From Thamnaconus septentrionalis (taxonomy: Eukaryota; Chordata; Actinopteri; Tetraodontiformes; Monacanthidae), in contig CM020504.1 of the NCBI GenBank assembly GCA_009823395.1, positions 26,808,531 to 26,872,530 of the forward strand: a stretch of DNA of 64,000 nucleotides, written 5' to 3'. The position numbers and the translations under genes are program-made. The notes under the pieces were generated by a model. The model ran no database searches. It worked only from the letters and a program-made list of their open reading frames with translations, and had not been told where the DNA came from. This document shows, one piece after another, positions 10,472 through 64,000 of this stretch (the first letter of the stretch is position 1; every line of letters begins with the position of its first letter).

Positions 10472-10494
10472 GTAAGGGCGTGTGCATATACACA

Positions 10495-10765: not shown

Positions 10766-10894
10766 TTTTGCAACAGAATCACAGTCGTGGCCAGGAAGAA
10801 TGAAATGATCAACCAAACCAAGGCTTAGTTTCTGTGCTTTGCTTCTACAGACTCAGTGGTTGCAGTAGAGCTGTACTCGTTGCTTCCTCTGCAG

Positions 10895-12009: not shown

Positions 12010-12070
<61 letters not shown>

Positions 12071-14197: not shown

Positions 14198-14408
14198 GTA
14201 CAAGACCAAGAATTCCCTTTCAGGATGAATTTGGCTCGTGTGCTCATCGAAGTGGAGGACAGAAACGACCACGTGCCTCTGTTCACCAGTGCTGCGTACA
14301 TGGGAACCGTGTACGAGTCGGCAGCAGTGGGCTCGGCTGTGGTCCGGGTCACTGCTGTGGACAAAGACAAAGGAAAGAATGCACAGCTGCACTACTCCAT
14401 TGATTCTG
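14198..14408 (+). CDS. fat3: fat3-like coding exon 8: cadherin repeat segment
   Basis: Residues ~1552-1621, phase 0 to 1. Begins VQDQEFPFRMNLARVLIEVE with EDRNDHVP as the calcium motif, and ends ...AQLHYSIDS plus one base. Donor GTAGGC at 14409. Confidence 0.9.
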
Positions 14409-14491
14409 GTAGGCACTCTCAACCTTTTGAAGATGATTTTTTTTCTCATATAAATTAAAGTGACAACGACTTTCTCATTTTTTTTTAACAG

Positions 14492-17220: not shown

Positions 17221-17328
17221 GTAAATGATGTCGAACTGCACTTCCTGTTTATGGTTGTGTCATTGTTGCTTTAAACATACATCAGCCTGTAAGCATCAAT
17301 TCATCTCAGGACTTTTTTTGTTCCCTAG

Positions 17329-18694: not shown

Positions 18695-18730
18695 GTAAGC
18701 GGATCTAAAACTGTCATTACAGTCAAACTC

Positions 18731-43960: not shown

Positions 43961-44985
43961 TTAATGAAAACAACTCTTCTTCACCACCACTACTTTCGAA
44001 CAAATGCCACATATTGGCTCGTCCGTGTTCATTGGCTCACCTCGTTCGTTTCGTTTGAAGCCGAACTGTTCCGATACTGGCACTGTTCACTCATAGCGTT
44101 TGCTCACTTTTCCTTCACTTCGCTCACTTGCAGCATTGTCCGTGTGTGTGTGTGTATCTGTGTCCGCGCCAGCACCCGCCTCGCCCATCCCGTGACAAAG
44201 AGATTTAATGACTGACAGGAGAGTTCACTTACTCCGTTCATTCCGCTATAGAGCCAACGCGGGTGGCCAATTAATAGTTTTGCGTCGCGGCTGACGCCAC
44301 GAAGCATTCACCGTAACAGGTACAGGGGTAATAACCACGATCGGGAAATTCCCGATCCTCTAAAATGTCCATATCTCCACGGTGGAATGAGTTATAGACT
44401 TGAAATTTTGTACACATGTGTATGAGGCGTGTACCTACCTGTAACGTGAGTTACGTGATGATGTCACTTCCGGTTCCGGAGTTATACCGGAAATAGCCAT
44501 ATCTCGGGAACCGTAGGTCGTAGAGACTGGGGATGGCACCAGCGTGTTCAGCATGGCCGAATTATGTCAGACGGATCAAGGTTCCAAGGTCGTAGGATTT
44601 ACCGTTCTCGCGATATTTGCGTTTGAATTTCGCTATTCATTTCAATGGGAGATTCGTTGAGTGGCAAAAACAGCCAAGTGTTTTTCCGAAAATCACCTCC
44701 CAGAAAGTGGTTTGGAGCACGTTTCAGGCCATTTGGAGTTGATACAACATGCCCTTTTAGGTAGTAACTTTTTTCACCTAGGTGGCGCTATAGTCACCAA
44801 AGTTGACGGACGGCCGGGAGGTCAGTCCGACCCCAGATGTACAAGAATCACGTGTCAATTATGTTCGTAGCCAAAGATATGAACTTAAAACCTATGTCAT
44901 TTATTGATTTTGAATTTGAATAAACATCAGTTCATATTTCCCAAAAAAACAATACAAAAGTTTCAAAATTACACTTAGCATGTAG
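43961..44985. other. Intergenic DNA before the tandem array
   Basis: No gene recognised. It contains a 19-nt perfect palindrome (44339-44357) and sequence at ~44360-44880 that reads like an unclassified dispersed repeat (several sentence-like motifs, no frame). Confidence 0.4.
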
Positions 44986-44995
44986 CTAGCGTGGT

Positions 44996-45052
44996 GACGG
45001 CGTTCGCGCAACGTTTCGGCCTAGGAATGGCCTTCCTCAGGCGCTGGCCGTC
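44996..45052 (-). ncRNA. Hammerhead-ribozyme-like fold, copy 1
   Basis: Read on the minus strand: outer stem I GACGGC/GCCGUC, inner stem I GCGC/GCGC, box CUGAGGA, one extra A, stem II GGCC/GGCC with loop AUUCCUA, GAAAC, then GUU before the cleavage position. Stem III would be two pairs (A-U, C-G) with no loop, as in minimal Penelope-type hammerheads. The extra A after CUGANGA deviates from the textbook core. Confidence 0.6.
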
Positions 45053-45177
45053 TGGAGCTGACTGCCTGAAATGGCTTGTCGCTCTAAGAGGCCCGTGCTC
45101 TGCTGCACCTCCCTCCCTCTTCAAAAAATTGGTTATAAAAATTGTTTTCAAAAATTGGTCTCAAATATTTCTTTCAG

Positions 45178-45851
45178 GTTGCAGTTTAACGTCATGCCCA
45201 GGACGCAGGTAAGTAAAAATTTGGTATAATTTATGAGTGTTTAATTTAGGTGACTTTATATAGTTTTTAATTTATTAATTTGTACCTGTAATCGACACCC
45301 ACCGTCATCTACTACATATTTCCCTAATATGGGATTATTATATGTTTTTCCCTCAGGTGGGAAGACGGTCCTGTCATTAAGAGTGCCGGACCCCTAGTAT
45401 GGGGACTCTTACGCAAACTCAGTCATCGAGGTAAGTCTTTTTCAATTAGTATTGTTTGTCCGAATTTTCCATTAATTTGTTGTTCTTCTTTCCACAGGGG
45501 CTCCAATCAGGTAAGTATATGTTTTTGTTTGTCCAATTAATTGTTTTTTCTTTTTTAGGTTCTCCAATCAGGTAAGTGGTTCAGGTGAGTAGGTTTTATC
45601 CTTTTCTTCTTTTCTTCTCTATCCTCTTCCTTTCCTCTTCCTTCATCCCTTTCTTCCTTTCCCCTTCCCATCTTCTTCCTCCCTTGTCTTCTTTTCCTCT
45701 GTTCTTCCCGTTCCTCTCCTTTATTCCACTAATCTTCTCCTTTCTTTTCTTCCAGGTCCATGGTCATCCACTCCATGTTGTCATCTGCTGTTCTCGATGC
45801 CCTAATGAATACCCCCCATCCCCATATGTGCGCTAATATGCGATTAATAAA
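45178..45851 (+). other. Putative multi-microexon transcription unit, monomer 1
   Basis: Ordered segments with strong flanking splice signals: 45178-45208 (31 nt), 45357-45430 (74 nt), 45498-45510 (13 nt), 45559-45571 (13 nt, sharing CTCCAATCAG with the previous one), then a terminal acceptor at 45754-45755 and AATAAA at 45846-45851. Donors are GTAAGT in all four cases. No coding potential is evident. Existence as RNA is inferred from signals only. Confidence 0.45.
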
Positions 45852-46021
45852 GATTATATTGGCTCAACTGCACCTTCTTACAGTGGCCTCTTTCTTGAAT
45901 ATTGGCGTGAGTAATAGCATTAGATAGACAAATGGGCTTTAGATCAGAGTTAGGGATTAAATACTGAGATAGATTAGGGTTAAGGGTTGGATTAAGGGGT
46001 TAAAAACAGGGTTAGGGTTTC

Positions 46022-46112
46022 TGTTTAGGTACAGGGTTAGGGGTTAAGGTTAGGGTTAGGGTAAGGTTAGGGTTAGGGTTAGGGTTAGGGTTAGGGTTAG
46101 GGTTAGGTTAAG
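46022..46112 (+). repeat. Telomeric (TTAGGG)n tract 1
   Basis: About ten TTAGGG units, slightly imperfect, ending at GGTTAAGGAAAAAGAG where the array element's hairpin end begins. The G-rich strand is the plus strand. Confidence 0.93.
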
Positions 46113-46190
46113 GAAAAAGAGTTCTCTCCTAAGAGAGAACAATGCACTCTCCGCTTCAGTCTGAGCTGGTGAGGCAGATCTCCCAGCTAT

Positions 46191-46254
46191 GGGTTAGGGT
46201 TAGGGTTAGGGTTAGGGTTAGGGTTAGGGTTAGGGTTAGGGTTAGGGTTAGGTT
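46191..46254 (+). repeat. Telomeric (TTAGGG)n tract 2
   Basis: About ten perfect TTAGGG units directly followed by GGTTAGAGAAAGAAGGG and the next copy of the element's hairpin end. Confidence 0.95.
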
Positions 46255-46403
46255 AGAGAAAGAAGGGTATTCTCCAACTGGAGACCCTGGTGCACTCTCC
46301 GGCTGAGAGTGTGATCCGGGTAGGCCTTCAAGCCCTAAGAAAGTCCACCACCCTAAGGTGGTGGGGTTTCCAAAAATTTTACATATCTTATAAAGATAGC
46401 AAA

Positions 46404-46459
46404 GATGGCGTTCGCGCAACGTTTCGGCCTGGTACGGCCTTCATCAGGCGCTGGCCATC
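46404..46459 (-). ncRNA. Hammerhead-ribozyme-like fold, copy 2
   Basis: Same plan with CUGAUGA and outer stem I GAUGGC/GCCAUC. Relative to copy 1, one C-G pair has become U-A on both sides, a compensatory change. Stem II GGCC/GGCC, loop GUACCA, then GAAAC and GUU. Confidence 0.62.
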
Positions 46460-47324
46460 TGACGGAGCTAACTGCCTGTATGGCTTTAGTTGCTCAGGAG
46501 CCGTGCTCTGTTTGCACCTCCCTTCCCAAATTTAGGATCTAATTTAAATGTTTTAATTTGTGCCAATAATTGCTTAATTTATATATTCCAATTTCTTTCA
46601 GGTTGCAGTTTAACGTCTTGCCCAGGACGGAGAGGTGAGTGTCCAATTAGTGTCTAAAATTGTCTTCTTTATGAGTTAATGTCTTTCTCTTTCCTCTCTT
46701 TTAGGTGCCCAATTAAGGTAGGTAAGGTAAGTATCCTATTTTCCTCCTTCTTCTTTCTTTTCCTCTATCCTTTCCTTCTTCTCCCCGTCTTCTTCATCCT
46801 TTTACTGCTGTTCTTCCAGTGTCTTCCTTCTTCCTCCAGTCTTCCTTTCTCCTCTTCCGTTTCCCATCTTCTCTCTTGTTCCACTGTCCCAACCGAATCC
46901 GCTTCCCAAGCCGCACTAATCCCTTTCCTTCTTCTTTCTCAGGTTCTAGATCTAGTGCGTCATCCAATCTTCAGCAATTCTCGATGCCTCCCACCCCCCA
47001 TCCCCATATAAGCGCTCGCAAGCGGTAAGTATAGTGGCTCAACTGGCATGATCCTTCAGTGGCCTTTCTTAAATTGGCTCAACCGGTATTTCTCTTCGGC
47101 GGCTCTTTATCCCAAGGCTGAAAATTAACTAAAGACTGAAGAGCTTAAGACTAGGGTTAGAGATCGAATCCGGTTAGGGTTAGGGCTCAGGAGAGACTCA
47201 AGGTAAGTAACAGGGTCAGAGGTCATAAATAGGTTACAGGATTTAGATACAGAAAGAACTAGGGTTAGGGTTAACCAAGGGGATAGAAACAGAGCAAGGG
47301 TTAGGTTTAGACGTTGGTAAGGGG

Positions 47325-47397
47325 TTATGGTTAGGGTTAGGGTTAGGGTTAGGGTTAGGGTTAGGGTTAGGGTTAGGGTTAGGGTTAGGGTTAGGTT
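47325..47397 (+). repeat. Telomeric (TTAGGG)n tract 3
   Basis: About eleven TTAGGG units ending at TTTAGGAAAAAAGG, the left end of the hairpin cluster of monomer 3. This is the last pure telomeric tract; later monomers keep only degenerate TTAGG motifs here. Confidence 0.95.
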
Positions 47398-47503
47398 TAG
47401 GAAAAAAGGTTCTCCTAAGAGAAACCTGAGCACTCTCCGGCTGAGAGTGTGCTCAGGGTGGGCCCCCAAGCCCTTAAGTTTTTCCACCACCCTAAGGTGG
47501 TGG
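47398..47503 (-). other. Hairpin cluster at the telomere-abutting end of the array element (type copy)
   Basis: Three consecutive stem-loops: ~47408-47428 (GGTTCTC...GAGAAACC), ~47428-47459 (CTGAGCACTCTC...GAGAGTGTGCTCAG, one bulge) and 47485-47504 (CCACCACC/GGTGGTGG, 8 bp perfect). The first and third have CTAA loops (UUAG on the minus strand). The cluster is repeated in every monomer and lies 3' of the ribozyme core on the minus strand. Confidence 0.8.
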
Positions 47504-47543
47504 AGGTTCAAAAAATTACACATCTCGTGTTTAGGATGCGAAA

Positions 47544-47601
47544 GACGGTTTACGCGCGACGTTTCGACCAATAGAGTGGTCTTCTTCAGGCGCTGACCGT
47601 C
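47544..47601 (-). ncRNA. Hammerhead-ribozyme-like fold, copy 3 (core type)
   Basis: CUGAAGA, stem II GACC/GGUC (a compensatory change from GGCC/GGCC), loop ACUCUAUU, GAAAC, then GUC, the most usual hammerhead cleavage triplet. Inner stem I GCGC/GCGC and outer GACGGU/ACCGUC. Confidence 0.62.
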
Positions 47602-47713
47602 TTGGGAGTTGACTGCCTAGTATGGCGTTAGTCACTCAAAAATTGGCCCGTGCAATGCTGCACCTCCCTCCCTTTCAAAAAATTGACTAATTGTTTTCCA
47701 ATTATTTTTTCAG

Positions 47714-48106
47714 GTTGCAGTTTAACGTCGTGCCCAGGACGGTGAGGTAAGTTTTCCAATTGTTAATTTGGTGTCTTTAATGACTTAATTAATTTCTTTT
47801 CTTTCTTTTCCAGGGTTCCCGGTCCAGGTGAGTAAAGGTAAGTCCTCTTTTCTTCCTTTCTCCTTCCTTCTCCTCTATCCTTTTCTTCCTCCTTTCTTCT
47901 TCCCCGTCTTCTTACTCCCTCTTGTTCTTTGTTCTTCCTTTCTTCTAGTCTTTTCTTCCGTCGATTGATCCTCTGTCTCTTCCGAATCCTTTGTCCTTAG
48001 CCGCTCTAATCTTTGTCCTTCTTCTTTTCCAGGTTCTTCTCATGGCTTCAATCAACTTTTTGCCTTTTTCGTACCATGTTGTGCGCTAATATGCGATAAT
48101 AATAAA
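47714..48106 (+). other. Putative microexon transcription unit, core monomer (type copy, monomer 3)
   Basis: Segment 47714-47746 (33 nt, TTTTTTCAG acceptor, GTAAGT donor), segment 47814-47827 (14 nt, TTTTCCAG acceptor, GTGAGT donor, with a second GTAAGT 10 nt further), a ~200-nt pyrimidine tract, terminal acceptor TTTTCCAG at 48031-48032 and AATAAA at 48101-48106. The same arrangement repeats in the following monomers. Confidence 0.45.
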
Positions 48107-48778
48107 TTGGCTCTACTGGATCCTTGTCTTCAGTGGCCTTCTTGAAATGAGCTCTCCCGGTATTTTTCTTCGGTGGCTATCAATATGGGATAATGGTAGA
48201 ACAGATGGCATTAAAAAGATGACGAGCTTAGATTAGGCTCTGAATCCAAAAATGGCCTCCAATCGGGAACTAAGAGGTAAGAGTACAGGGTGGGACGGGA
48301 ATTAGCTAGGGTTAGCGATAGTGGATAGAAACAAACAGGGGTTAGGTTTAGGCGTTGATAAGGGGTTAGGTTCTGTTTAGGGTTAGGATAGGGTTGGGTG
48401 TAGATCCAAATTAAAGGGGTTAAGTTTAGGTGTCCATCAAATTGGTTAGGTTTAGGCGGGAATTCCGAATTGGTTAGGTTTAGGTATGTCCTTCGAATTG
48501 GTTAGGTTTAGTGTCATGGGTTAGGGGTAGGTGTACAATCCAATAGGGAATAAACAACATGCAAAAAGGGGCTCAGAGGGCTAGGGGACCACATCCCATC
48601 ACAACACCCTCCGGGACCTGGCTGGGTAGGTTTAGGAAAAAAGGTTCTCCTAAGAGAAACCTGAGCACTCTCCGGCTGAGAGTGTGCTCAGGGTGGGCCC
48701 CCAAGCCCTTAAGTTTTTCCACCACCCTAAGGTGGTGGAGGTTCAAAAAATTACACATCTCGTGTTTAGGATGCGAAA

Positions 48779-48836
48779 GACGGTTTACGCGCGACGTTTC
48801 GACCAATAGAGTGGTCTTCTTCAGGCGCTGACCGTC
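48779..48836 (-). ncRNA. Hammerhead-ribozyme-like fold, copy 4
   Basis: Identical to copy 3 in all core positions. Confidence 0.6.
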
Positions 48837-50014
48837 TTGGGAGTTGACTGCCTAGTATGGCGTTAGTCACTCAAAAATTGGCCCGTGCAATGCTGCACCT
48901 CCCTCCCTTTCAAAAAATTGACTAATTGTTTTCCAATTATTTTTTCAGGTTGCAGTTTAACGTCGTGCCCAGGACGGTGAGGTAAGTTTTCCAATTGTTA
49001 ATTTGGTGTCTTTAATGACTTAATTAATTTCTTTTCTTTCTTTTCCAGGGTTCCCGGTCCAGGTGAGTAAAGGTAAGTCCTCTTTTCTTCCTTTCTCCTT
49101 CCTTCTCCTCTATCCTTTTCTTCCTCCTTTCTTCTTCCCCCGTCTTCTTACTCCCTCTTGTTCTTTGTTCTTCCTTTCTTCTAGTCTTTTCTTCCGTCCG
49201 ATTGATCCTCTGTCTCTTCCGAATCCTTTGTCCTTAGCCGCTCTAATCTTTGTCCTTCTTCTTTTCCAGGTTCTTCTCATGGCTTCAATCAACTTTTTGC
49301 CTTTTTCGTACCATGTTGTGCGCTAATATGCGATAATAATAAATTGGCTCTACTGGATCCTTGTCTTCAGTGGCCTTCTTGAAATAGAGCTCTCCCGGTA
49401 TTTTTCTTGGTGGCTATCAATATGGGATAATGGTAGAACAGATGGCATTAAAAAGATGACGAGCTTAGATTAGGCTCTGAATCCAAAAATGGCCTCCAAT
49501 CGGGAACTAAGAGGTAAGAGTACAGGGTGGGACGGGAATTAGCTAGGGTTAGCGATAGTGGATAGAAACAAACAGGGGTTAGGTTTAGGCGTTGATAAGG
49601 GGTTAGGTTCTGTTTAGGGTTAGGATAGGGTTGGGTGTAGATCCAAATTAAAGGGGTTAAGTTTAGGTGTCCATCAAATTGGTTAGGTTTAGGCGGGAAT
49701 TCCGAATTGGTTAGGTTTAGGTATGTCCTTCGAATTGGTTAGGTTTAGTGTCATGGGTTAGGGGTAGGTGTACAATCCAATAGGGAATAAACAACATGCA
49801 AAAAGGGGCTCAGAGGGCTGGGGACCACATCCCATCACAACACCCTCCGGGACCTGGCTGGGTAGGTTTAGGAAAAAAGGTTCTCCTAAGAGAAACCTGA
49901 GCACTCTCCGGCTGAGAGTGTGCTCAGGGTGGGCCCCCAAGCCCTTAAGTTTTTCCACCACCCTAAGGTGGTGGAGGTTCAAAAAATTACACATCTCGTG
50001 TTTAGGATGCGAAA

Positions 50015-50072
50015 GACGGTTTCTACGCGACGTTTCGACCAATAGAGTGGTCTTCTTCAGGCGCTGACCGTC
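50015..50072 (-). ncRNA. Hammerhead-ribozyme-like fold, copy 5
   Basis: Core boxes as in copy 3; inner stem I is GCGC against GCGU, which still pairs with a G-U wobble. Confidence 0.55.
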
Positions 50073-51247
50073 TTGGGAGTTGACTGCCTAGTATGGCGTT
50101 AGTCACTCAAAAATTGGCCGTGCAATGCTGCACCTCCTCCCTTTCAAAAAAATTGACTAATTGTTTTCCAATTATTTTTCAGGTTGCAGTTTAACGTCGT
50201 GCCCAGGACGGTGAGGTAAGTTTTCCAATTGTTAATTTGGTGTCTTTAATGACTTAATTAATTTCTTTTCTTTCTTTTCCAGGGTTCCCGGTCCAGGTGA
50301 GTAAAGGTAAGTCCTCTTTTCTTCCTTTCTCCTTCCTTCTCCTCTATCCTTTTCTTCCTCCTTTCTTCTTCCCCGTCTTCTTACTCCCTCTTGTTCTTTG
50401 TTCTTCCTTTCTTCTAGTCTTTTCTTCCGTCGATTGATCCTCTGTCTCTTCCGAATCCTTTGTCCTTAGCCGCTCTAATCTTTGTCCTTCTTCTTTCCAG
50501 GTTCTTCTCATGGCTTCAATCAACTTTTGCCTTTTTTTTCGTACCATGTTGTGCGCTAATATGCGATAATAATAAATTGGCTCTACTGGATCCTTGTCTT
50601 CAGTGGCCTTCTTGAAATGAGCTCTCCCGGTATTTTTCTTCGGTGGCTATCAATATGGGATAATGGTAGAACAGATGGCATTAAAAAGATGACGAGCTTA
50701 GATTAGGCTCTGAATCCAAAAATGGCCTCCAATCGGGAACTAAGAGGTAAGAGTACAGGGTGGGACGGGAATTAGCTAGGGTTAGCGATAGTGGATAGAA
50801 ACAAACAGGGGTTAGGTTTAGGCGTTGATAAGGGGTTAGGTTCTGTTTAGGGTTAGGATAGGGTTGGGTGTAGATCCAAATTAAAGGGGTTAAGTTTAGG
50901 TGTCCATCAAATTGGTTAGGTTTAGGCGGGAATTCCGAATTGGTTAGGTTTAGGTATGTCCTTGAATTGGTTAGGTTTAGTGTCATGGGTTAGGGGTAGG
51001 TGTACAATCCAATAGGGAATAAACAACATGCCAAAAAGGGGCTCAGAGGGCTAGGGGACCACATCCCATCACAACACCCTCCGGGACCTGGCTGGGTAGG
51101 TTTAGGAAAAAAGGTTCTCCTAAGAGAAACCTGAGCACTCTCCGGCTGAGAGTGTGCTCAGGGTGGGCCCCCAAGCCCTTAAGTTTTTCCACCACCCTAA
51201 GGTGGTGGAGGTTCAAAAATTACACATCTCGTGGTTTAGGATGCGAA

Positions 51248-51305
51248 GACGGTTTACAAGTGACGCTTCGACCAATAGAGTGGTCTTCTTCAGGCGCTGA
51301 CCGTC
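51248..51305 (-). ncRNA. Hammerhead-ribozyme-like fold, copy 6 (probably inactive)
   Basis: GAAAC is changed to GAAGC and inner stem I is damaged (plus-strand TTTACAAGTGACG). Activity is unlikely if the fold is a hammerhead. Confidence 0.45.
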
Positions 51306-52480
51306 TTGGGAGTTGACTGCCTAGTATGGCGTTAGTCACTCAAAATTGGCCCGCAGTAATGCTGCACCTCCCTCCCTTTCAAAAAATTGACTAATTGTTT
51401 TCCAATTATTTTTTCAGGTTGCAGTTTAACGTCGTGCCCAGGACGGTGAGGTAAGTTTTCCAATTGTTAATTTGGTGTCTTTAATGACTTAATTAATTTC
51501 TTTTCTTTCTTTTCCAGGGTTCCCGGTCCAGGTGAGTAAAGGTAAGTCCTCTTTTCTTCCTTTCTCCTTCCTTCTCCTCTATCCTTTTCTTCCTCCTTTC
51601 TTCTTCCCCGTCTTCTTACTCCCTCTTGTTCTTTGTTCTTCCTTTCTTCTAGTCTTTTCTTCCGTCGATTGATCCTCTGTCTCTTCCGAATCCTTTGTCC
51701 TTAGCCGCTCTAATCTTTTTGTCCTTCTTCTTTTCCAGGTTCTTCTCATGGCTTCAATCAACTTTTGCCTTTTTTTCGTACCATGTTGTGCGCTAATATG
51801 CGATAATAATAAATTGGCTCTACTGGATCCTTGTCTTCAGTGGCCTTCTTGAAATGAGCTCTCCGGTATTTTTCTTCGTGGCTATCAATATGGGATAATG
51901 GTAGAACAGATGGCATTAAAAAAGATGACGAGCTTAGATTAGGCTCTGAATCCAAAATGGCCTCCAATCGGGAACTAAGAGGTAAGAGTACAGGGTGGGA
52001 CGGAATTAGCTAGGGTTAGCGATAGTGGATAGAAACAAACAGGGGTTAGGTTTAGGCGTTGATAAGGGGTTAGGTTCTGTTTAGGGTTAGGATAGGGTTG
52101 GGTGTAGATCCAAATTAAAGGGGTTAAGTTTAGGTGTCCATCAAATTGGTTAGGTTTAGGCGGGAATTCCGAATTGGTTAGGTTTAGGTATGTCCTTCGA
52201 ATTGGTTAGGTTTAGTGTCATGGGTTAGGGGTAGGTGTACAATCCAATAGGGAATAAACAACATGCAAAAAGGGGCTCAGAGGGCTAGGGGACCACATCC
52301 CATCACAACACCCTCCGGGACCTGGCTGGGTAGGTTTAGGAAAAAGGTTCTCCTAAGAGAAACCTGAGCACTCTCCGGCTGAGAGTGTGCTCAGGGTGGG
52401 CCCCCAAGCCCTTAAGTTTTTCCACCACCCTAAGGTGGTGGAGGTTCAAAAATTACACATCTCGTGTTTAGGATGCGAAA

Positions 52481-52538
52481 GACGGTTTACGCGCGACGTT
52501 TCGACCAATAGAGTGGTCTTCTTCAGGCGCTGACCGTC
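52481..52538 (-). ncRNA. Hammerhead-ribozyme-like fold, copy 7
   Basis: All boxes and stems as in copy 3. Confidence 0.6.
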
Positions 52539-53710
52539 TTGGGAGTTGACTGCCTAGTATGGCGTTAGTCACTCAAAATTGGCCCGTGCAATGCTGCACC
52601 TCCCTCCCTTTCAAAAAAATTGACTAATTGTTTTCCAATTATTTTTCAGGTTGCAGTTTAACGTCGTGCCCAGGACGGTGAGGTAAGTTTTCCAATTGTT
52701 AATTTGGTGTCTTTAATGACTTAATTAATTTCTTTTCTTTCTTTTCCAGGGTTCCCGGTCCAGGTGAGTAAAGGTAAGTCCTCTTTTCTTCCTTTCTCCT
52801 TCCTTCTCCTCTATCCTTTTCTTCCTCCTTTCTTCTTCCCCGCCTTCTTACTCCCTCTTGTTCTTTGTTCTTCCTTTCTTCTAGTCTTTTCTTCCGTCGA
52901 TTGATCCTCTGTCTCTTCCGAATCCTTTGTCCTTAGCCGCCTAATCTTTGTCCTTCTTCTTTCCAGGTTCTTCTCATGGCTTCAATCAACTTTTGCCTTT
53001 TTTCTGCACCATGTTGTGCGCTAATATGCGATAATAATAAATTGGCTCTACTGGATCCTTGTCTTCAGTGGCCTTCTTGAAATGAGCTCTCCCGGTATTT
53101 TCTTCGGTGGCTATCAATATGGGATAATGGTAGAACAGATGGCATTAAAAAGATGACGAGCTTAGATTAGGCTCTGAATCCAAAAATGGCCTCCAATCGG
53201 GAACTAAGAGGTAAGAGTACAGGGTGGGACGGGAATTAGCTAGGGTTAGCGATAGTGGATAGAAACAAACAGGGGGTTAGGTTTAGGCGTTGATAAGGGG
53301 TTAGGTTCTGTTTAGGGTTAGGATAGGGTTGGGTGTAGATCCAAATTAAAGGGGTTAAGTTTAGGTGTCCATCAAATTGGTTAGGTTTAGGCGGGAATTC
53401 CGAATTGGTTAGGTTTAGGTATGTCCTTCGAATTGGTTAGGTTTAGTGTCATGGGTGGGGTAGGTGTACAATCCAATAGGGAATAAACAACATGCAAAAA
53501 GGGGCTCAGAGGGCTAGGGGACCACATCCCATCACAACACCCTCCGGGACCTGGCTGGGTAGGTTTAGGAAAAAAGGTTCTCCTAAGAGAAACCTGAGCA
53601 CTCTCCGGCTGAGAGTGTGCTCAGGGTGGGCCCCCAAGCCCTTAAGTTTTTCCACCACCCTAAGGTGGTGGAGGTTCAAAAAATTACACATCTCGTGTTT
53701 AGGATGCGAA

Positions 53711-53771
53711 GACGGTTTGTTTACGCCGACGTTTCGACCAATAGAGTGGTCTTCTTCAGGCGCTGACCGCC
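53711..53771 (-). ncRNA. Hammerhead-ribozyme-like fold, copy 8
   Basis: Boxes and stem II intact; a small insertion (TTTG) and a lost base weaken stem I. Confidence 0.5.
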
Positions 53772-56180
53772 TTGGGAGTTGACTGCCTAGTATGGCGTTA
53801 GTCACTCAAAAATTGGCCCGGGCAAGCTGCACCTCCCTCCCTTTCCAAAAAATTGACTAATTGTTTTCCAATTATTTTTTCAGGTTGCAGTTTAACGTCG
53901 TGCCCAGGACGGTGAGGTAAGTTTTCCAATTGTTAATTTGGTGTCTTTAATGACTTAATTAATTTCTTTTCTTTCTTTTCCAGGGTTCCCGGTCCAGGTG
54001 AGTAAAGGTAAGTCCTCTTTTCTTCCTTTCTCCTTCCTTCTCCTCTATCCTTTTCTTCCTCCTTTCTTCTTCCCCGTCTTCTTACTCCCTCTTGTTCTTT
54101 GTTCTTCCTTTCTTCTAGTCTTTTCTTCCGTCGATTGATCCTCTGTCTCTTCCGAATCCTTTGTCCTTAGCCCAGCCTAATCTTTGTCCTTCTTCTTTTC
54201 CAGGTTCTTCTCATGGCTTCAATCAACTTTTTGCCTTTTTCGTACCATGTTGTGCGCTAATATGCGAATAATAATAAATTGGCTCTACTGGATCCTTGTC
54301 TTCAGTGGCCTTCTTGAAATGAGCTCTCCGGTATTTTCTTCGGGTGGCTATCAATATGGGATAATGGTAGAACAGATGGCATTAAAAAGATGACGAGCTT
54401 AGATTAGGCTCTGAATCCAAAAATGGCCTCCAATCGGGAACTAAGAGGTAAGAGTACAGGGTGGGACGGGAATTAGCTAGGGTTAGCGATAGTGGATAGA
54501 AACAAACAGGGGTTAGGTTTAGGCGTTGATAAGGGGTTAGGTTCTGTTTAGGGTTAGGATAGGGTTGGGTGTAGATCCAAATTAAAGGGGTTAAGTTTAG
54601 GTGTCCATCAAATTGGTTAGGTTTAGGCGGGAATTCCGAATTGGTTAGGTTTAGGTATGTCCTTCGAATTGGTTAGGTTTAGTGTCATGGGTTAGGTAGT
54701 GTGTACAATCCAATAGGAATAAACAACATGCAAAAAGGGGCTCAGAGGGCTAGGGGACCACATCCCATCACAACACCCTCGGGACCTGGCTGGGTAGGTT
54801 TAGGAAAAAGGTTCTCCTAAGAGAAACCTGAGCACTCTCCGGCTGAGAGTGTGCTCAGGGTGGCCCCCAAGCCCTTAAGTTTTCCACCACCCTAAGGTGG
54901 TGGAGGTTCAAAAATTACACATCTCGTGTTTAGGATGCGAAAGACTTGGTTCTGCTGGCGGCGATTTCGACCAATAGAGTGGTCTTCTTCAGGCGCTGAC
55001 CGTCTTGGGAGTTGACTGCCTAGTATGGCGTTAGTCATAAAAATTGGCCAACCCCGTGCAATGCTGCACCTCCTCCCTTTCAAAAATTGACTAATTGTTT
55101 TCCAATTATTTTTTTCAGGTTGCAGTTTAACGTCGTGCCCAGGACGGTGAGGTAAGTTTTCCAATTGTTAATTTGGTGTCTTTAATGACTTAATTAATTT
55201 CTTTTCTTTCTTTTCCAGGGTTCCCGGTCCAGGTGAGTAAAGGTAAGTCCTCTTTTCTTCCTTTCTCCTTCCTTCTCCTCTATCCTTTTCTTCCTCCTTT
55301 CTTCTTCCCCCGTCTTCTTACTCCCTCTTGTTCTTTGTTCTTCCTTTCTTCTAGTCTTTTCTTCCGCCGATTGATCCTCTGTCTCTCTTCGAATCCTTTG
55401 TCCTTAGCCGCTCTAATCTTTGTCCTTCTTCTTTCCAGGTTCTTCTCATGGCTTCAATCAACTTTTGCCTTTTTCGTACTATGTTGTGCGCTAATATGCG
55501 ATAATAATAAATTGGCTCTACTGGATCCTTGTCTTCAGTGGCCTTCTTGAAATGAGCTCTCCCGGTATTTTTCTTCGGTGGCTATCAATATGGGATAATG
55601 GTAGAACAGATGGCATTAAAAGATGACGAGCTTAGATTAGGCTCTGAATCCAAAAATGGCCTCAATCGGGGAACTAAGAGGTAAGAGTACAGGGTGGGAC
55701 GGGAATTAGCTAGGGTTAGCGATAGTGGATAGAAACAAACAGGGGTTAGGGTTTAGGCGTTGATAAAGGGTTAGGTTCTGTTTAGGGTTAGGATAGGGTG
55801 GGTGTAGATCCAAATTAAAGGGTTAAGTTTAGGTGTCCATCAAATTGGTTAGGTTTAGTAAAGAATTCGAATTGGTTAGGTTTAGGTATGTCCTTCTGAA
55901 TTGGTTTAGGTTTAGTGTCATGGGTTAGGGGGTAGGTGTACAATCCAATAGGAATAAACAACATGCAAAAAGGGGCTCAGAGGGCTAGGGGACCACATCC
56001 CATCACAACACCCTCCGGGACCTGGCTGGGTAGGTTTAGGAAAAAGGTTCTCCCAGAAGAGAAACCTGAGCACTCTCCGCTGAGAGTGTGCTCAGGGTGG
56101 GCCCCAAGCCTTAAGTTTTTCCACCACCCTAAGGTGGTGGAGGTTCAAATTACACATCTCTAGGTGTTTTAGATGCGAAA

Positions 56181-56238
56181 GATGGTTTACTGACGACGCT
56201 TCGACCAATAGAGTGGTCTTCTTCAGGCGCTGACCGTC
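56181..56238 (-). ncRNA. Hammerhead-ribozyme-like fold, copy 10 (probably inactive)
   Basis: CUGAAGA and stem II intact but GAAAC has become GAAGC and inner stem I is altered. Copy 9 (54943-55004) is more damaged, with the GAAAC/GUC region replaced. Confidence 0.45.
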
Positions 56239-57416
56239 TTGGGAGTTGACTGCCTAGTATGGCGTTAGTCACTCAAAATTGGCCGATGCAATGCTGCACC
56301 TCCTCCCTTTCAAAAAATTGACTAATTGTTTTCCAATTATTTTTTCAGGTTGCAGTTTAACGTCGTGCCCAGGACGGTGAGGTAAGTTTTCCAATTGTTA
56401 ATTTGGTGTCTTTAATGACTTAATTAATTTCTTTCTTTCTTTTCCAGGGTTCCCGGTCCAGGTGAGTAAAGGTAAGTCCTCTTTTCTTCCTTTCTCCTTC
56501 CTTCTCCTCTATCCTTTTCTTCCTCCTTTCTTCTTCCCGTCTTCTTACTCCCTCTTGTTCTTTGTTCTTCCTTTCTTCTAGTCTTTTCTTCCGTCGATTG
56601 ATCCTCTGTCTCTTCGAATCCTTTGTCCTTAGCCGCTCTAATCTTTGTCCTTCTTCTTTTCCAGGTTCTTCTCATGGCTTCAATCAACTTTTGCCTTTTA
56701 CATTGCACCATGTTGTGCGCGCTAATATGCGATAATAATAAATTGGCCTCTACTGGATCCTTGTCTTCAGTGGCCTTCTTGAAATGAGCTCTCCGGTATT
56801 TTCTTCGGTGGCTATCAATATGGGATAATGGTAGAACAGATGGCATTAAAAAGATGACGAGCTTAGATTGGGCTCTGAATCCAAAAATGGCCTCAATCCG
56901 GGAACTAAGAGGTAAGAAGTACAGGGTGGGACGGGGAATTAGCTAGGGTTAGCGATAGTGGATAGAAACAAACAGGGGTTAGGTTTAGAGCGTTGATAAA
57001 GGGTTAGGTTCTGTTTAAGGTTGAGATAGGGTTGGGTGTAGATCCAAATTAAAGGGGTTAAGTTTAGGTGTCCATCAAATTGGTTAGGTTTAGGCGGGAA
57101 TTCCGAATTGGTTAGGTTTAGGTATGTCCTTCGAATTGGTTAGGTTTAGTGTCATGGGTTAGGGGTAGGTGTACAATCCAATAGGGAATAAACAACATGC
57201 AAAAAGGGGCTCAGAGGGCTAGGGGACCACATCCCATCACAACACCCTCCGGGACCTGGCTGGGTAGGTTTAGGAAAAAAGGTTCTCCTAAGAGAAACCT
57301 GAGCACTCTCCGGCTGAGAGTGTGCTCAGGGTGGGCCCCCAAGCCCTTAAGTTTTTCCACCACCCTAAGGTGGTGGAGGTTCAAAAAATTACACATCTCG
57401 TGTTTAGGATGCGAAA

Positions 57417-57474
57417 GACGGTTTACGCGCGACGTTTCGACCAATAGAGTGGTCTTCTTCAGGCGCTGACCGTC
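57417..57474 (-). ncRNA. Hammerhead-ribozyme-like fold, copy 11
   Basis: Identical to copy 3 in core boxes and stems; the last intact copy before the decayed part of the array. Confidence 0.6.
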
Positions 57475-60400
57475 TTGGGAGTTGACTGCCTAGTATGGCG
57501 TTAGTCACTCAAAATTGGCCCGTGCAATGCTGCACCTCCCTCCCCTTTCAAAAATTGACTAATTGTTTTCCAATTATTTTCAGGTTGCAGTTTAACGTCG
57601 TGCCCAGGACGGTGAGGTAAGTTTTCCAATTGTTAATTTGGTGTCTTTAATGACTTAATTAATTTCTTTTCTTTCTTTCCAGGGTTCCGGTCCAGGTGAG
57701 TAAAGGTAAGTCCTCTTTTCTTCCTTTCTCCTTCCTTCTCCTCTATCCTTTTCTTCCTCCTTTCTTCTTCCCCGCCTTCTCACTCCCTCTTGTTCTTTGT
57801 TCTTTCCTTTCTTCTAGTCTTTTCTTCCGCCGATTGATCCTCTGTCTCTTCCGAATCCTTTGTCCTTAGCCGCTCTAATCTTTGTCCTTCTTCTTCTTTC
57901 CAGGTTCTTCTCATGGCTTCAATCAACCTTTTGCCTTTTCGTACCATGTTGTGCTAATATGCGATAATAATAAATTGGCTCTACTGGATCCTTGTCTTCA
58001 GTGGCCTTCTTGAAATGAGCCTCTCCGGTATTTTTCTTGATTGGTAGCCCTATCAATATGGGATAATGGTAGAACAGATGGCATTAAAAAGATAAGTTTA
58101 AAAGTCCACCAACGAGCTTAGATTAGGCTCCCTGAATCCAAAAATGCAAGCCTCCAGGGTCAGGGACCATCCATCACAAACTAAGAGGTAAGAGTACAGC
58201 ACCTAATGGAGTGGGTGGGAGTTTTCCCGGGAATTAGTTTAGGGGGTTGCCGACAAAGGCCTGCAAGCGATAGTGGATAGTGAAACAAACAGGGTTAGGT
58301 TTAGAGCGTTGATGAGGGTTTAAATCTGTTGAATTCTGCAATTTCTTCCAGGGTCCCTGGTTAGGGTTAGGATAGGGTTGGCCTTAATCTTTGTCCTTCT
58401 TTTGTAGATCCAAATTAAAGGGGTTAAGTCTTAGGTGTCCATCAAATTGGACAATTGCATTAAAAAGTTTAGATTAGGCCTAAACGGAATTCTGGGAATT
58501 GGTTGGGTTTAGGTATGTCCTTAGGCCCTGCTTATATTATAATTGGTTAGTTAAGTTTAGTGTCATGGGTTAGGGGGTAGGTGTACATGTCCCTTCAATC
58601 AGGGAATAAACAACATGCAAAAAGGGGCTCAGAGGGCTAGGGGACCACATCCCATCACAGCACCCTCCGGGACCTGGCTAGGTGAGTTTAGGAAAAAAAG
58701 GTTCTCCCTAAGAGAAACCTGAGTACTCTCTCCGGCTGAGAGGTGTGCTCAGGGTGGGCCCCTGCCCTTAAGTTTTCCACCACCCCTAAGGTGGTGGAGG
58801 TTCAAAAATACACATCTCGTGTTTAGATACGAAAAAAGAGCGGCTTACGCGCGACGCTTACGAACCAATAGAGTGGTCTTCTTCAGGCGCTGACCGTCTT
58901 GGGAGTTGACTTCCTCATTATAGCGTTAGTCACTCAAAAATTGGCCCGCAATGCTGCACCTCCTCCCTTTCAAAAAATTGACTTAATTGTTTTCCAATTA
59001 TTTTTCAGGTTGCAGTTTAACGTCGTGCCCAGGACGGTGAGGTAAGTTTTCCAATTGTTAATTTGGTGTCTTTAATGACTTAATTAATTTCTTTTTTCTT
59101 TCTTTTCCAGGGTTCGGTCCAGGTGAGTAAAGGTAAGTCCTCTTTTTCTTCCTTTCCTTCCTTCTCCTCTATCCTTTTCTTCCTCCTTTCTTCTTCCCGC
59201 CTCTTCTTACTCCCTCTTGTTCTTTGTTCTTCCTTTCTTCTAGTCTTTTCTTCCGCCGATTGATCCTCTGTCTCTTCCAACTTTGTCCTTAGCCGCCTAA
59301 TCTTTTGTCCTTCTTCTTTCCAGGTTCTTCTCATGGCTTCAATCAACTTTTGCCTTTTTCGTACCATGTTTGTGCGCTAATATGCATAATAATAAATTGG
59401 CTCTACTGGATCCTTGTCTCTGTGGCCTTCTTGAAATGAGCTCTCCGGTATTTTTCTTCGGTGGCTATCAATATGATGATAATGGTAGAACAGATGGCAT
59501 TAAAAAGATGACGAGCTTAGATTAGGCTCTGAATCCAAAAATGGCCTCCAACTGGAACTAAGAGGTAAGAGTACAGGGGTGGGACGGGAATGAAACTAGG
59601 GTTAGCGATAGTGATAGAAACAAACAGGGTTAGGTTTAGGCGTTGATAAGGGGTTAGGTTCTGTTTAGGGTTAGGATAGGGTTGGGTGTAGATCCAAATT
59701 AAAGGGGTTAAGTTTAGGTGGTGTCCATCAAATTGGTTAGGTTTAGGCGGAATTCTGAATTAGTTAGGGGCTTTAGGTATGTCCTTCGAATTGGCTAGGG
59801 TTTAGTGTCATGGGTTAGGTAGGTGTACAATCCATTAATAGGGAATAAACAACATGGGGGCAGGGGCTCAGAGGGCTAGGGGGGATCCACATCCCATCAC
59901 AACACCTCCGGGACCTGGCTGCAGGTAGGTTTAGGGAAAAAGGTTCTCCTAAGAGAAACCTGAGCACCTCCGGCTGAGAGTGTGCTCAGGTGGGCCTCAA
60001 GCCCTTAGTTTCCACCACCCCAAGGTGGTGGAGGTTCAAAATTACACATCTCGTGTTTGGGATGCGAAGACGGTTTACTGCCGACGTCAATTCAATAGAG
60101 TGGTCTTCTTCAGGCGCTTTGACCGCTCTTGGGAGTTGACTGCCTAGTAATGGCGTTAGTCACTCAAAATTGGCCCGTGCAACGCTGCACCTCCCTCCCT
60201 TTCAAAAAAATTGACTAATTGTTTTCCAATTATTTTTTCAGGTTGCAGTTTAACGTCGTGCCCAGGACTGGTGAGGTAAGTTTTCCAATTGTTAATTTGG
60301 TGTCTTTGATGACTTAATTAATTTCTTTTCTTTCTTTTCCAGGGTTCCCGGTCCAGGTGAGTAAGTCTCTCTTCCTTTCTCCTTCCTTCCTCTATCCTTT

Positions 60401-63400
60401 CTTCCTCCTTTCTTCTTCCCCGCCTTCTTACTCCCTCTTGTTCTTTGTTCTTCTCTTTCTTCTAGTCTTTTTCTTCCGCCGATTGATCCCTCTGTCTCTT
60501 CCGAATCCTTTGTCCTTAGCCGCTTCTAATCTTTTGTCCTTCTTCTTTTCCAGGTTCTTCTCATGGCTTCAATCAACTTTGCCTTTTTCGTACCATGTTG
60601 TGCGCGCTAATATGCGATAATAACAAATTGGCTCTACTGGATCCTTGTCTTCAGTGGCCTTCTTGAAAATGAGCTCTCCCGGTATTTTTCTTCGGTGGCT
60701 ATCAACAGTGGGATAATGGTAGAACAGATGGCATTAAAAAGATGACGAGCTTAGATTAGGCTCTGAATCCAAAATGGCCTCAAATCAGAACTAAGAGGTA
60801 AGAGTACAGGGTGGGACGGGAATTAGCTAGGGTTAGGGATAGTGGATAGAAACAAACAGGGTTAGGTTTGAGGGCGCTGATAAGGGGTTAGGTTCTGTTT
60901 AGAGGTTAGGATAGGGTTGGGTGTGGATCCAAATTAAAAGGGTTAAGTTTAGGTGTCCATCAAATTGGTTAAGTTTAGGCGAGAATTCGAATTGGTTAGG
61001 GTTTAGGTATGTCCTTCGTAATTGGTTAGGTTTAGTGTCCTTGGGTTGAGGGGTAGGTGTACAATCCAACAGAATAAACAACATGCAAAAAGGGGCTCAG
61101 AGGGCTAGGGGGACCACATCCCATCACAACACCTCCGGGACCTGGCTGGGTAGGTAGGAAAAAGGTTCTCCTAAGAGAAACCTGAGCACTCTCAGGCTGA
61201 GAAATTGTGTGCTCAGGGTGGGCCCCCGGCCACTTAAGTTTCCACCACCCTCATGGGTGGTGGAACCAAAAATTACACATCCGTGGTTTACGATGCGAGA
61301 AAGACGGTTTACACGCTGACGCTCCGCCCAACAGAGTGGTCATCAGCGCGACCATCTTGGGAGTTGACTGCCTAGTATGGCGTTAGTCACTCAAAATGGG
61401 CCGGTAATGCTGTTACCCTCCCTCCTTTCAAAATTGACTAATTGTTTTTCCAATTATTTTTTCAGGTTGCAGTTGCTTGTCGTGCCCAGGACTTGGTGAG
61501 GTAAGTTTTCCAATTGTTAATTTGGTGTCTTTAATGACTTAATTAATTTCTTTTCTTTTCTTTCCAGGGTTCCCGGTCCAGTTGAGTAAAGGTAAGTCCT
61601 CTTTTTCTTCCTTTCTCTCCTTCTCCTATCCTTTTCTTCCTCCTTTCTTCTTCCCTGCCTTCTTCCCTCCCCTCTTGTTCTTTGTTCTTCCTTTCTTCTA
61701 GCTCCTTTCTTCCGCCGATTGATCCCTCTGTCTCTTCCTCGAATCCTTTGTCCTTAGTCAGCTTCTAATCTTTGTCCTTCTTCTTTTCAGGTTCTTTCTC
61801 ATGGCTTCAATCAACTTTTTGCCTTTTTTCGCATTTCATGTTGTGCGCCTAATATGGTATAATAATAAATTGGTTCTACTGATCCTCTTGTCTTCAGTGG
61901 CCTTCTTGAAATGAGCTCTCCGGTATTTTTCTTCGGTGGCTATCAATATGGGATAATAGTGCAGACAGATGGCATTAAAAAGATGATTTAACTAGATTAG
62001 GCTCTGAATCCAAAAATAGCCTCCAATCGGAACTAAGAGGTAAAAATTATAGGGTGGGGCGAAATTAGCTAGGGTTAGCGATAGTGGATAAAACAAACAG
62101 GGGGTTAGAGTTTAGGCGTTGATAGAGGGTTAGATTCTGTTTTAGGGTTAGGATAAGGTTGGGCGTAGATCCAAATTAAAGTTGGTTGCTTAGGTGTCCA
62201 ACAAATTGGATTTAGGTTTATTGAAGATTCCTAGATTAGTTAGGTTTAGGCATGTCCTTCGAATTGGTTAGAGTTTGAGTGTCATGGGTTAGGGTGAGTG
62301 TACAATCCAATAGAGAATAAACAACATACAAAAAGAGGCTCAGAGGGCTGGGGACCACATCCCATCACAAATACCCTCCAGGACCTGTTTAGGCAGGTTT
62401 AGGAAAAAATTTCTCTAAGAGAAAAGCTAGGCACTCTCGGCAGAGAGTGTGCTCAGGGTAGACCCTCAAGCTCTGCCAGCTTTTTCCACCACCCCTAAGG
62501 TGGTGGGAGGTTCAAAATTACACATCTCGTGTTTGGGATACGAAAGGCGGTTCTAATGCTGACGCTTTAGGCAATAGAGTGGTCTTCTTCAGTAGCTGAC
62601 CGCCTTGGGGAGTTGGACTGGTTTGTAAGTATGCATGCTGATCACTCAAAAATTGGTGATGCAATACTGCACTGCCCTCCCTTTCAAAAAAAATTGACTA
62701 ATTGTTTTCCAATTATTTTTTCAGGTTGCAGTTTAACGTGGTACCCCAGGACCCGGTGAGGTAAGTTTTTCAATTATTGATTTGAAGCCTTTTAATGACT
62801 TAATTAATTTCTTTTCTTTCTTTCCGGGGTTCCCGGTCCAGGTGAGTAAAGGTGAGTCCTCTTTTCTACCTTTCTCCTTCCTTCTCCTCTATCCTTTTCT
62901 TCCTCCTTTCTTCTTCCCATCTTCTTACTCCCTCTTGTTCTTTGTTCTTCCCTTTCTTCTAGTCTTTTCTTCCAGTCAGTGATCCTCTAGCCTCTTCCAG
63001 ATCCTTTGTCCTTAGTCAGCTCTAATCTTTTGTCCTTCTTCTTTTCCAGAGTTCTTCTCATGGCTTCAATCAACTTTTTGCCTTGGTCGTACTCATGTTT
63101 ATTAACTAATATGCGATAATAATAAATTGGCTCTACCGGATCCTTGTCTTCAGTGGCCTTCTTTGAAATGAGCTCTCCCGGTATTTTTCTTCGGTGGCTA
63201 ATCAATATGGGATAATGGTAGAACAGATGGCATTAAAAGCATGACGAACTTAGATTAGGCTCTGAATCCAAAATGGCCTCCAATCGGGAACCAAGAGGTA
63301 AGAGTACAAGGGTGGGGCAGGAATTAGCTGGGGTTAGCGATAGTGAATGAGAAACAAACAGGGGTTAGGGTTTAGGCAAAGATAAGAGGTTGAGTTCTGT

Positions 63401-64000
63401 TTAGGGTTAGGGATAGGGTTGGGTGTAGATCCAAGTTAAAGGGGTTAAGTTTGGGTGTCCAACAAATTGGTTGGGTTTAGAAGTAGAATTCCGAATTGAA
63501 CAGGTTTTGTGCATGTCCTCTCGAATTGGACTGAGGTTTAGTGTCATGGGTTGGGGCAGGTGCCACAGTCCAATAGGAATAAACAACATGCCAAAAAGAG
63601 CTCCAGAGGGCTAGGGGGACCACATCCCATCACAACACCCTCCAGGACCTGGCTGGGTGAGTTTTAGGAAAAAGGTTCTCCTAAGAGAAACCTGAGGCAC
63701 TCTCCGGTGAGTGTGTGCTCAGGGTGGGCCCCCTGCCCATGAAAGTTTTTCCCACCAAATTCCTAAGGTGGTGGAGGTTCAGAAATTACACATCCTTTTG
63801 GGTTTAGGATCACGAAAGACGGTTTCTGTGACGTTTAAAATAATAAATTAGTCTTCTTCAGGCGCCGACCTGCTTTGGGAGTTTAGGTTAGGTGTTTCTT
63901 ATGAGGTGAATTTATTTTTTTCCTTTTTTTTTCCTTTTCCTCCCTTCTTCCCTTTTTCCCCTTTCTTTCCTTTTCTTTTCTTCCTCTTCCTTTTTCCCCG
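57417..64000. repeat. Decayed right part of the array
   Basis: Five further monomers and a partial one with many scattered indels and foreign-looking short insertions (58050-58560 repeats phrases out of order, lengthening that monomer to ~1.42 kb). The cores at ~58838, 60068, ~61302, ~62546 and ~63816 are damaged. The last ~120 bp (63890-64000) is pure pyrimidine-rich low complexity. Decay at an array edge and poor consensus quality are both possible. Confidence 0.8.

What the first reader, a model, noticed from the sequence alone, without database searches (positions are those of the whole stretch)
44996..57474. A hammerhead-ribozyme-like motif in every intact monomer of the array, supported by covariation
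On the minus strand the box CUGANGA varies only at N (G in copy 1, U in copy 2, A in the rest), the one position hammerheads leave free. Stem II changes from GGCC/GGCC to GACC/GGUC and outer stem I from GACGGC/GCCGUC to GAUGGC/GCCAUC to GACGGU/ACCGUC, always compensated. GAAAC is followed by GUU or GUC. The two-pair, loopless stem III resembles minimal hammerheads of Penelope-like elements, which are thought to work as dimers, and a tandem array would supply dimers. Caveat: one extra A lies between CUGANGA and stem II.
Basis: partly seen in the sequence, partly recalled or inferred. Interest (0 to 1): 0.9.

Follow-up and report, generated by a model that had tools for sequence, protein, structure and literature searches.

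The report
Self-cutting-RNA motif at chromosome ends
Repeats at many chromosome ends of this vertebrate carry a conserved RNA fold that matches the hammerhead self-cutting ribozyme except for one extra base, so RNA copied from them would likely cut itself into unit lengths, probably as part of the life of a mobile element that settles near telomeres.

Summary
The minus-strand motif has 16 sites (44,996-63,885), not only up to 57,474; the core is intact in 8 of 16. Rfam finds no hammerhead. The window is the last 64 kb of a chromosome-scale contig, and the motif pattern occurs 651 times in that genome. Of the 100 places listed, 96 lie within 300 kb of a contig end, and 92 of those 96 point inward (telomeric C-strand). 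Stems I and II covary (14 pairs, 29 sequences: 85.4% paired against 27-45% when slid). N7 varies; G8 and the extra A hardly ever do. Stem III is a loopless ACGU palindrome that only a dimer could form. A conserved tail usually follows: Sm-site-like AAUUUUUUGA, hairpins, often (CCCUAA)n. The same extra-A motif lies beside Penelope-like RT/GIY-YIG reading frames, and identical copies flank a 5.6-kb two-frame subtelomeric element. Best reading: a non-autonomous subtelomeric Penelope-type repeat with an A-inserted minimal hammerhead, predicted to cut tandem transcripts into units as dimers. Transcription, cleavage and telomere attachment are untested. A new variant of a known kind (PLE/Terminon hammerheads); I found no description of it in vertebrates in the papers searched.

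The parts
44996..45064 (-). motif site of type 1 (N7 = G, extra A, core intact); homology ends soon after it
46403..46471 (-). motif site of type 2 (N7 = T, extra A, core intact)
47543..47613 (-). array motif site, core intact
48778..48848 (-). array motif site, core intact (reference monomer 47590-48824)
50014..50084 (-). array motif site, core intact, one G-U in inner stem I
51247..51317 (-). array motif site, core changed (GAAGC)
52480..52550 (-). array motif site, core intact
53710..53783 (-). array motif site, core intact, stem I changed
54949..55016 (-). array motif site, core changed
56180..56250 (-). array motif site, core changed
57416..57486 (-). array motif site, core intact
58838..58910 (-). 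array motif site, core changed
60068..60137 (-). decayed motif site in the array, not found by the model (approximate ends)
61299..61368 (-). decayed motif site in the array, not found by the model (approximate ends)
62545..62616 (-). decayed motif site (E 0.087)
63817..63885 (-). decayed motif site (E 0.11)
47389..64000 (-). tandem array of the ~1235-bp monomer, to the contig end
48743..48752 (-). Sm-site-like AATTTTTTGA downstream of the motif in the reference monomer
48719..48738 (-). conserved hairpin CCACCACCTTAGGGTGGTGG
48663..48689 (-). second hairpin of the tail (by eye; not a pair of the consensus fold)
46191..46256 (-). telomeric repeats, CCCTAA on the motif strand, after the 46447 site
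47322..47401 (-). telomeric repeats, CCCTAA on the motif strand, after the 47589 site
46010..46107 (-). telomeric repeats, CCCTAA on the motif strand, after a partial tail

Best explanation
The array is a tandem block of a subtelomeric repeat, likely non-autonomous, whose better-kept units carry a hammerhead-type core with one extra A, and RNA from its minus strand is predicted to self-cleave there, likely as dimers, into unit-length pieces. Shown: the letters, the covarying stems I and II, free N7 beside a fixed G8, the nearly invariant extra A, the loopless self-complementary ACGU, the subtelomeric place and mostly inward orientation, the recurrent tail (Sm-like site, hairpins, often CCCTAA repeats), and the same extra-A motif at Penelope-like (PLE) frames in the same genome. 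Inferred: the minus strand is transcribed through several units; two units pair through ACGU/ACGU, so stems I and III form between them, and each is cut after H17; the RNA is copied by the reverse transcriptase of the subtelomeric two-frame PLE; its C-rich 3' sequence could pair with the G-rich chromosome end to prime copying, as proposed for rotifer Terminons; later unequal exchange spread the monomer into the array.
For: 651 pattern matches, 0 in the backward control. RNAalifold on 25 relatives, given no structure, finds inner stem I and stem II at the hammerhead places. 14 pairs over 29 chosen sequences: 85.4% paired against 27.0-45.2% slid; 35 double-change cells against a shuffled mean of 8.9, 0 of 500. 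Stem I strands of 13 families fit their own partner: mean -13.79 against -8.84 kcal/mol, 0 of 10,000 permutations. N7 T29 A23 G23 C3 of 78; no CGTG among the 78; G8 replaced: 1 hit, control 1. Extra A replaced by C, G or T: 0; absent: 5 hits, of which 2 are truly A-less; 15 of 15 motifs in six contig-end stretches fetched blind have it. Model without window sequences finds 14 of 16 window sites. 96 of 100 listed places within 300 kb of a contig end, 92 of 96 inward. Same-strand (CCCTAA)2 downstream in 36 of 72, G-rich in 0 of 72. PLE frames beside the motif: L020, L011 and L015, L079. An A in the same place exists in the active plus hammerhead of CChMVd (PMC3705267, passages). Minimal PLE hammerheads in tandem may cut as dimers (PMC7761336, passages).
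Against: No Rfam hammerhead match. Half of the window sites have lost the core. For the main array type the best computed fold shifts inner stem I and pairs part of the core, 2.9 kcal/mol below the hammerhead pairing. The inserted A is outside the hammerhead consensus and lowers the rate in CChMVd. In the lizard PLE PAc the hammerhead cut only with protein added, was not needed for insertion in vitro, and left no RNA ends in public reads (PMC11167929, passages). No RNA data here. The window units hold no RT frame. The 45040 copy ends soon after the motif, without tail hairpins or telomeric repeats. Related copies are not independent.
Confidence: 0.6

Rival explanations
1. The fold is a descendant of a hammerhead that no longer cuts at a useful rate because of the extra A, and it is kept as a binding or priming structure for the PLE reverse transcriptase.
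For: Extra A nearly invariant and Rfam negative; catalytic mutants of the PAc hammerhead still insert in vitro (PMC11167929, passages).
Against: N7 stays free while neighbouring G8 does not change, and no site has G at position 17; these are rules of the catalytic core rather than of a plain stem-loop. An A in the same place is active in CChMVd.
Confidence: 0.2
2. The motif was active in the founder element, but the window array is a passively amplified satellite in which it does nothing now.
For: 8 of 16 sites have a broken core, with no sign that breaks are kept out; near-identical monomers fit spread by unequal exchange.
Against: The identical intact sequence is kept in 47589, 48824, 52526 and 57462 and at places on C3; some differences cluster in a way that may be assembly error.
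Confidence: 0.13
3. The conserved function lies on the opposite strand: a spliced RNA running toward the telomere, with the motif region kept for other reasons.
For: AGGTRAGT splice-donor words: 156 on the strand opposite the motif against 1 on the motif strand in 120.6 kb; acceptor-like words 30 against 0 in the window array.
Against: The core rules make sense on the motif strand only, and the Sm-like word is in 53 of 61 tails on the motif strand and 0 of 61 on the other. Both strands could be used.
Confidence: 0.05

Closest known systems
Minimal type I hammerheads of Penelope-like elements
   Same: Minimal core without a proper helix III, tandem copies, in or near PLE terminal repeats, thought to act as dimers (PMC7761336, PMC6155905, passages).
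   Different: A nearly invariant extra A after A9; the window repeat has no frames of its own. Whether published PLE hammerheads carry the A could not be checked (papers not held).
Terminons and other telomere-associated PLEs of rotifers
   Same: Hammerhead, then reverse-complement telomeric repeats; telomere-proximal, head-to-tail arrays; 5' ends cut by telomeric repeats (PMC6431247, passages; L060).
   Different: Vertebrate host; about 190 nt of Sm-like site and hairpins between motif and repeats; the reverse transcriptase keeps a GIY-YIG domain; units of 1.2 and 5.6 kb, not giant.
CChMVd plus-strand hammerhead
   Same: An unpaired A between A9 and the first stem II pair (PMC3705267, passages).
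   Different: A viroid; monomer-active; there the A is a single case, here it is a family trait.
Metazoan retrozymes and newt satellite 2
   Same: Non-coding tandem repeats with type I hammerheads; dimer action in amphibians (PMC7229834, PMC6155905, passages).
   Different: Units of about 170-400 nt with canonical cores; here 1,235 bp, minimal A-inserted core, telomeric tail.

Membership tests
Hammerhead ribozyme | CUGANGA box with N7 free and the rest fixed | tested here: met
   N7 takes four letters; G8 replaced gives 1 hit with 1 in the control. Other box positions were fixed by the search and not tested.
Hammerhead ribozyme | stem II starts directly after A9 | tested here: not met
   One extra A in between; precedent in CChMVd.
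Hammerhead ribozyme | stems I and II with covariation | tested here: met
Hammerhead ribozyme | GAAA with A15.1-U16.1 and H17 | tested here: met
   63 of 78 distinct sites read GAAACGTH, none GAAACGTG; GAAA was required by the search.
Hammerhead ribozyme | stem III | tested here: inconclusive
   Two loopless pairs (ACGU): possible only between two units; not shown to form.
Hammerhead ribozyme | match to Rfam hammerhead models | tested here: not met
Hammerhead ribozyme | self-cleavage | not testable with these tools
   needs RNA assay
Penelope-like element | RT and GIY-YIG frame with flanking repeats that carry the motif | tested here: not met
   Not met by the window units. Met by a relative: C1 element with identical motifs 5,586 nt apart around two frames.
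Terminon / telomere-associated PLE | subtelomeric place, uniform orientation | tested here: met
   96 of 100 listed places, 92 of 96 inward
Terminon / telomere-associated PLE | reverse-complement telomeric repeats directly after the hammerhead | tested here: inconclusive
   Same-strand CCCTAA repeats in 36 of 72, but about 190 nt downstream.
Terminon / telomere-associated PLE | endonuclease-deficient RT | tested here: not met
   ORF2 has GIY-YIG above Pfam's cut-off.
Metazoan retrozyme | unit of about 170-400 nt with canonical type I hammerhead | tested here: not met
   1,235-bp unit, minimal core with extra A

The most novel reading that the evidence does not exclude
Vertebrate subtelomeres here are built by a ribozyme-processed, telomere-seeking retroelement system: C-strand RNAs are cut into units by A-inserted dimeric hammerheads, held as RNPs through an Sm-like site, and end in a telomerase-template-like CCUAACCC tract that pairs with the chromosome end, where a two-frame Penelope-like reverse transcriptase copies them; a second, Terminon-like route of chromosome-end growth beside telomerase.
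Probability: 0.25. Interest if true: 0.92.

Novelty: new variant of a known kind. Interest (0 to 1): 0.8.

Why it matters
Penelope-like reverse transcriptases share ancestry with telomerase (PMC3846280, passages), and the role of their hammerheads is called a mystery (PMC7761336, passages). Here one vertebrate genome offers hundreds of copies with a fixed departure from the hammerhead core, a stem III that only a dimer could form, and a tail that often ends in the telomeric template sequence, mostly in one orientation at chromosome ends. That makes the open question of what the hammerhead is for directly testable: cleavage as dimers, the effect of the extra A, help by protein, and priming on telomeric ends. 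It also shows a hammerhead-like class that the Rfam models miss.

Tried and rejected
Rfam at gathering score and at E <= 10, in the window and in 20 relatives, gave no hammerhead; the weak SmY and SL1 matches (E 0.4-9.3) seem to rest on an Sm-like site plus a hairpin and are below threshold, so I do not call the RNA an snRNA. Pfam on eight long window frames: Fat-type cadherin and EGF exons, unrelated. An IMG/VR pattern scan found nothing. PDB sequence searches with ORF2 and ORF1 gave only matches at E about 1 or worse. 'Interstitial' telomeric repeats: rejected, the window ends at the contig end. In one search the rows were filtered for the extra A and for stem II, so that call is not used as evidence for these; at least one of its 78 rows (window +20654) is a chance match and L015 +1756 may be another family. 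In one search the outer stem I is out of register in some families, which lowers its count (69.8% paired). In one search an Sm-like word also lies within 90 nt upstream in 20 of 61 sites, so the word is not confined to the tail. A wider pattern did not complete, nor its A-less twin, so the statistics of the extra A rest on narrower patterns, and those are a little narrower than those. Papers: no report of hammerhead-bearing subtelomeric PLE arrays in a vertebrate among the rows listed (22 of 22 papers; 12 of 12; 15 of 91; 20 of 176; 20 of 52; 15 of 77; 10 of 10; 15 of 37); only open-licence PMC papers are held. PMC10088271 (passages) lists telomere-associated retrotransposons and names only Tx1_Acar for vertebrates. 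PMC10794172 (passages) puts Penelope near frog centromeres.
Full report
What was checked. On the minus strand the window holds 16 sites of the motif, from 45,040 to 63,861 (first base of CTGA or its counterpart). They fall into three types: the copy at 45,040, the copy at 46,447, and the array of a ~1,235-bp monomer from 47,389 to the window's end. Eight of 16 sites keep CTGANGA...GAAACGTH; among the others are three full-length monomers 95.7-98.6% identical to the reference, changed in the 3' half of the motif. Rfam 15 gives no hammerhead, at gathering score or at E <= 10 in 44-64 kb.

Where it is. The window is bases 26,808,531-26,872,530 of a contig of 26,872,530 bases: the array lies at the end of a chromosome-scale contig. 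The long window frames at 4-19 kb are Fat-type cadherins; the named relatives listed are vertebrate, apart from one odd source name. The pattern with set stem II letters and the extra A has 257 + 394 matches and none when read backwards. Of the 100 places listed (on C1 and C3-C10 only), 96 lie within 300 kb of a contig end, which is 2.3% of those nine contigs, and 92 of the 96 point inward, on the telomeric C-strand. Of 20 left ends of C1-C20 looked at over 3-10 kb, 10 hold the motif: eight by eye pattern (C5, C6, C7, C9, C11, C16, C18, C19) and two by the model (C10, C20); the other ten show none above E 0.01.

Is it a hammerhead fold? Base pairing: RNAalifold on 25 relatives, given no structure, predicts inner stem I and stem II at the hammerhead places, with compensatory changes. 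Fourteen hammerhead pairs over 29 chosen sequences give 85.4% paired cells against 27.0-45.2% with partners slid by 1 to 3, and 35 double-change cells against a shuffled mean of 8.9 (0 of 500; the measure 'further pair types' does not differ, 177 of 500). Over 13 families the two strands of stem I pair with each other better than with those of other families (mean -13.79 against -8.84 kcal/mol, 0 of 10,000 permutations); stem I played no part in choosing the sites. Core rules: N7 takes all four bases (T29, A23, G23, C3 of 78 distinct sites) and none of the 78 reads CGTG; replacing G8 leaves one hit, with one in the control. A model built without window sequences finds 14 of 16 window sites. 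Against: single-sequence folding gives the exact hammerhead pairing as optimum for 45040 and 50060, adds four pairs in the core of 46447, and for the main array type prefers a shifted inner stem I by 2.9 kcal/mol.

The extra A. Intact copies have one A between A9 and stem II. Without it the genome has 5 pattern hits, 3 of which still read CTGANGAAGCC, so two are truly A-less, one of these with G at position 17. With C, G or T in its place there are none. In six contig-end stretches fetched without knowing of motifs there (L025, L027, L032, L034, L035, L037), 15 of 15 motifs have the A. It is a family trait. The plus hammerhead of CChMVd has an A in the same place and is active; there the A costs some rate, C or G is very harmful, and U raises the rate (PMC3705267, passages).

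Stem III. GAA-ACGU-H has no loop, so one unit can form stems I and II only. ACGU is self-complementary, so two units could share a 4-bp stem III. The interior PLE copies of this genome have ACGCGU instead (3 of 3), again self-complementary. It is an inference.

What it belongs to. At C6:23.68 Mb the motif lies about 130 nt after a PLE C-terminal fragment, near a longer PLE copy with an RYIDDI-type RT and a GIY-YIG-like end (the listed relatives of that frame carry RVT_1, GIY-YIG or PF26215, fish and amphibians among those named). A search with this frame gives 87 matches in the genome. Among them is a distant clade (26-34% identity); of 15 of its rows that I picked, 13 lie within 300 kb of a contig end, 12 face inward, and 12 have no stop inside the match. 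One unit on C1 is complete: identical motifs at 34,805,490 and 34,799,904 flank ORF1 (650 aa between stops; weak GDSL-like match, below cut-off) and ORF2 (767 aa between stops; GIY-YIG above, RVT_1 just below Pfam's cut-off). The window units have no such frames and are taken as non-autonomous relatives; that the ORF2 enzyme serves them is inferred from shared motif, place and orientation.

The tail. In most of 25 aligned relatives the motif is followed by a variable stretch, an Sm-site-like AAUUUUUUGA (consensus recalled), hairpin CCACCACC-loop-GGUGGUGG, further predicted pairing, then CCUAACCC. The Sm-like word is in 53 of 61 sites of the non-PLE groups, 1 of 12 of the two-frame-PLE type, 0 of 3 interior PLE copies and 1.4% of shuffled tails; on the other strand 0 of 61; but also upstream in 20 of 61 (copies are related, and at least one of the 61 is a chance row). 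The hairpin is in 47 of 61. (CCCTAA)2 follows on the same strand in 36 of 72, (TTAGGG)2 in 0 of 72. One copy is cut at its 5' end by telomeric repeats right before CTGA (L060). Rotifer Terminons show a hammerhead plus reverse-complement telomeric repeats, 5' truncation by telomeric repeats and head-to-tail arrays (PMC6431247, passages). Differences: vertebrate host, about 190 nt between motif and repeats, and a reverse transcriptase that keeps its endonuclease domain.

Results against. Rfam negatives; half of the window's cores broken; the best fold of the main array type; in the lizard PLE PAc the hammerhead cut only with protein added, was not needed for insertion in vitro, and left no RNA ends in public reads (PMC11167929, passages). 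No RNA data are at hand. Clustered differences among near-identical monomers may be assembly error.

Verdict. A real, structurally constrained hammerhead-type motif with a nearly fixed extra A, in a subtelomeric, Penelope-related repeat system. Dimer cleavage of tandem C-strand transcripts is inferred. It likely works like a PLE/Terminon hammerhead; strict membership in the Rfam hammerhead families fails on the inserted A and on the score. Hammerhead numbering, the Sm consensus, the U1 5' end and the telomerase template are recalled, not from a call.

Noticed in passing
window 44901-64000 (+ strand; for example donors at 47747, 47828, 47838) and 17 other subtelomeric loci: The strand opposite the motif is full of perfect 5' splice-site words AGGTRAGT: 156 against 1 in 120.6 kb, 46 against 0 in the window array, with acceptor-like words 30 against 0. 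Read on the motif strand, ACTTACCT equals the U1 snRNA 5' end (recalled). It could mean a spliced telomere-ward RNA, U1 recruitment, or a U1 mimic.
   Followed up: partly
window 47715-47747 and matching places near 45.2 and 46.6 kb: A ~33-nt exon-like block (GTTGCAGTTTAACGTC-TGCCCAGGACG on the + strand) between acceptor-like and donor-like sites is kept in all three types while its surroundings differ.
   Followed up: partly
   Followed up: partly
window monomers 47589-57462: Differences among near-identical monomers cluster in a few short CG-bearing stretches, above all the 3' half of the motif (33 in one 25-nt bin); real hotspot or assembly error.
   Followed up: partly
L060 (C10:25,079-25,399): A motif copy whose upstream side is pure CCCTAA repeats up to the first base of CTGA.
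   Followed up: no
window 4055-18708: A Fat-type (Fat 3-like) cadherin gene lies within about 60 kb of the contig end, beside the array.
   Followed up: no
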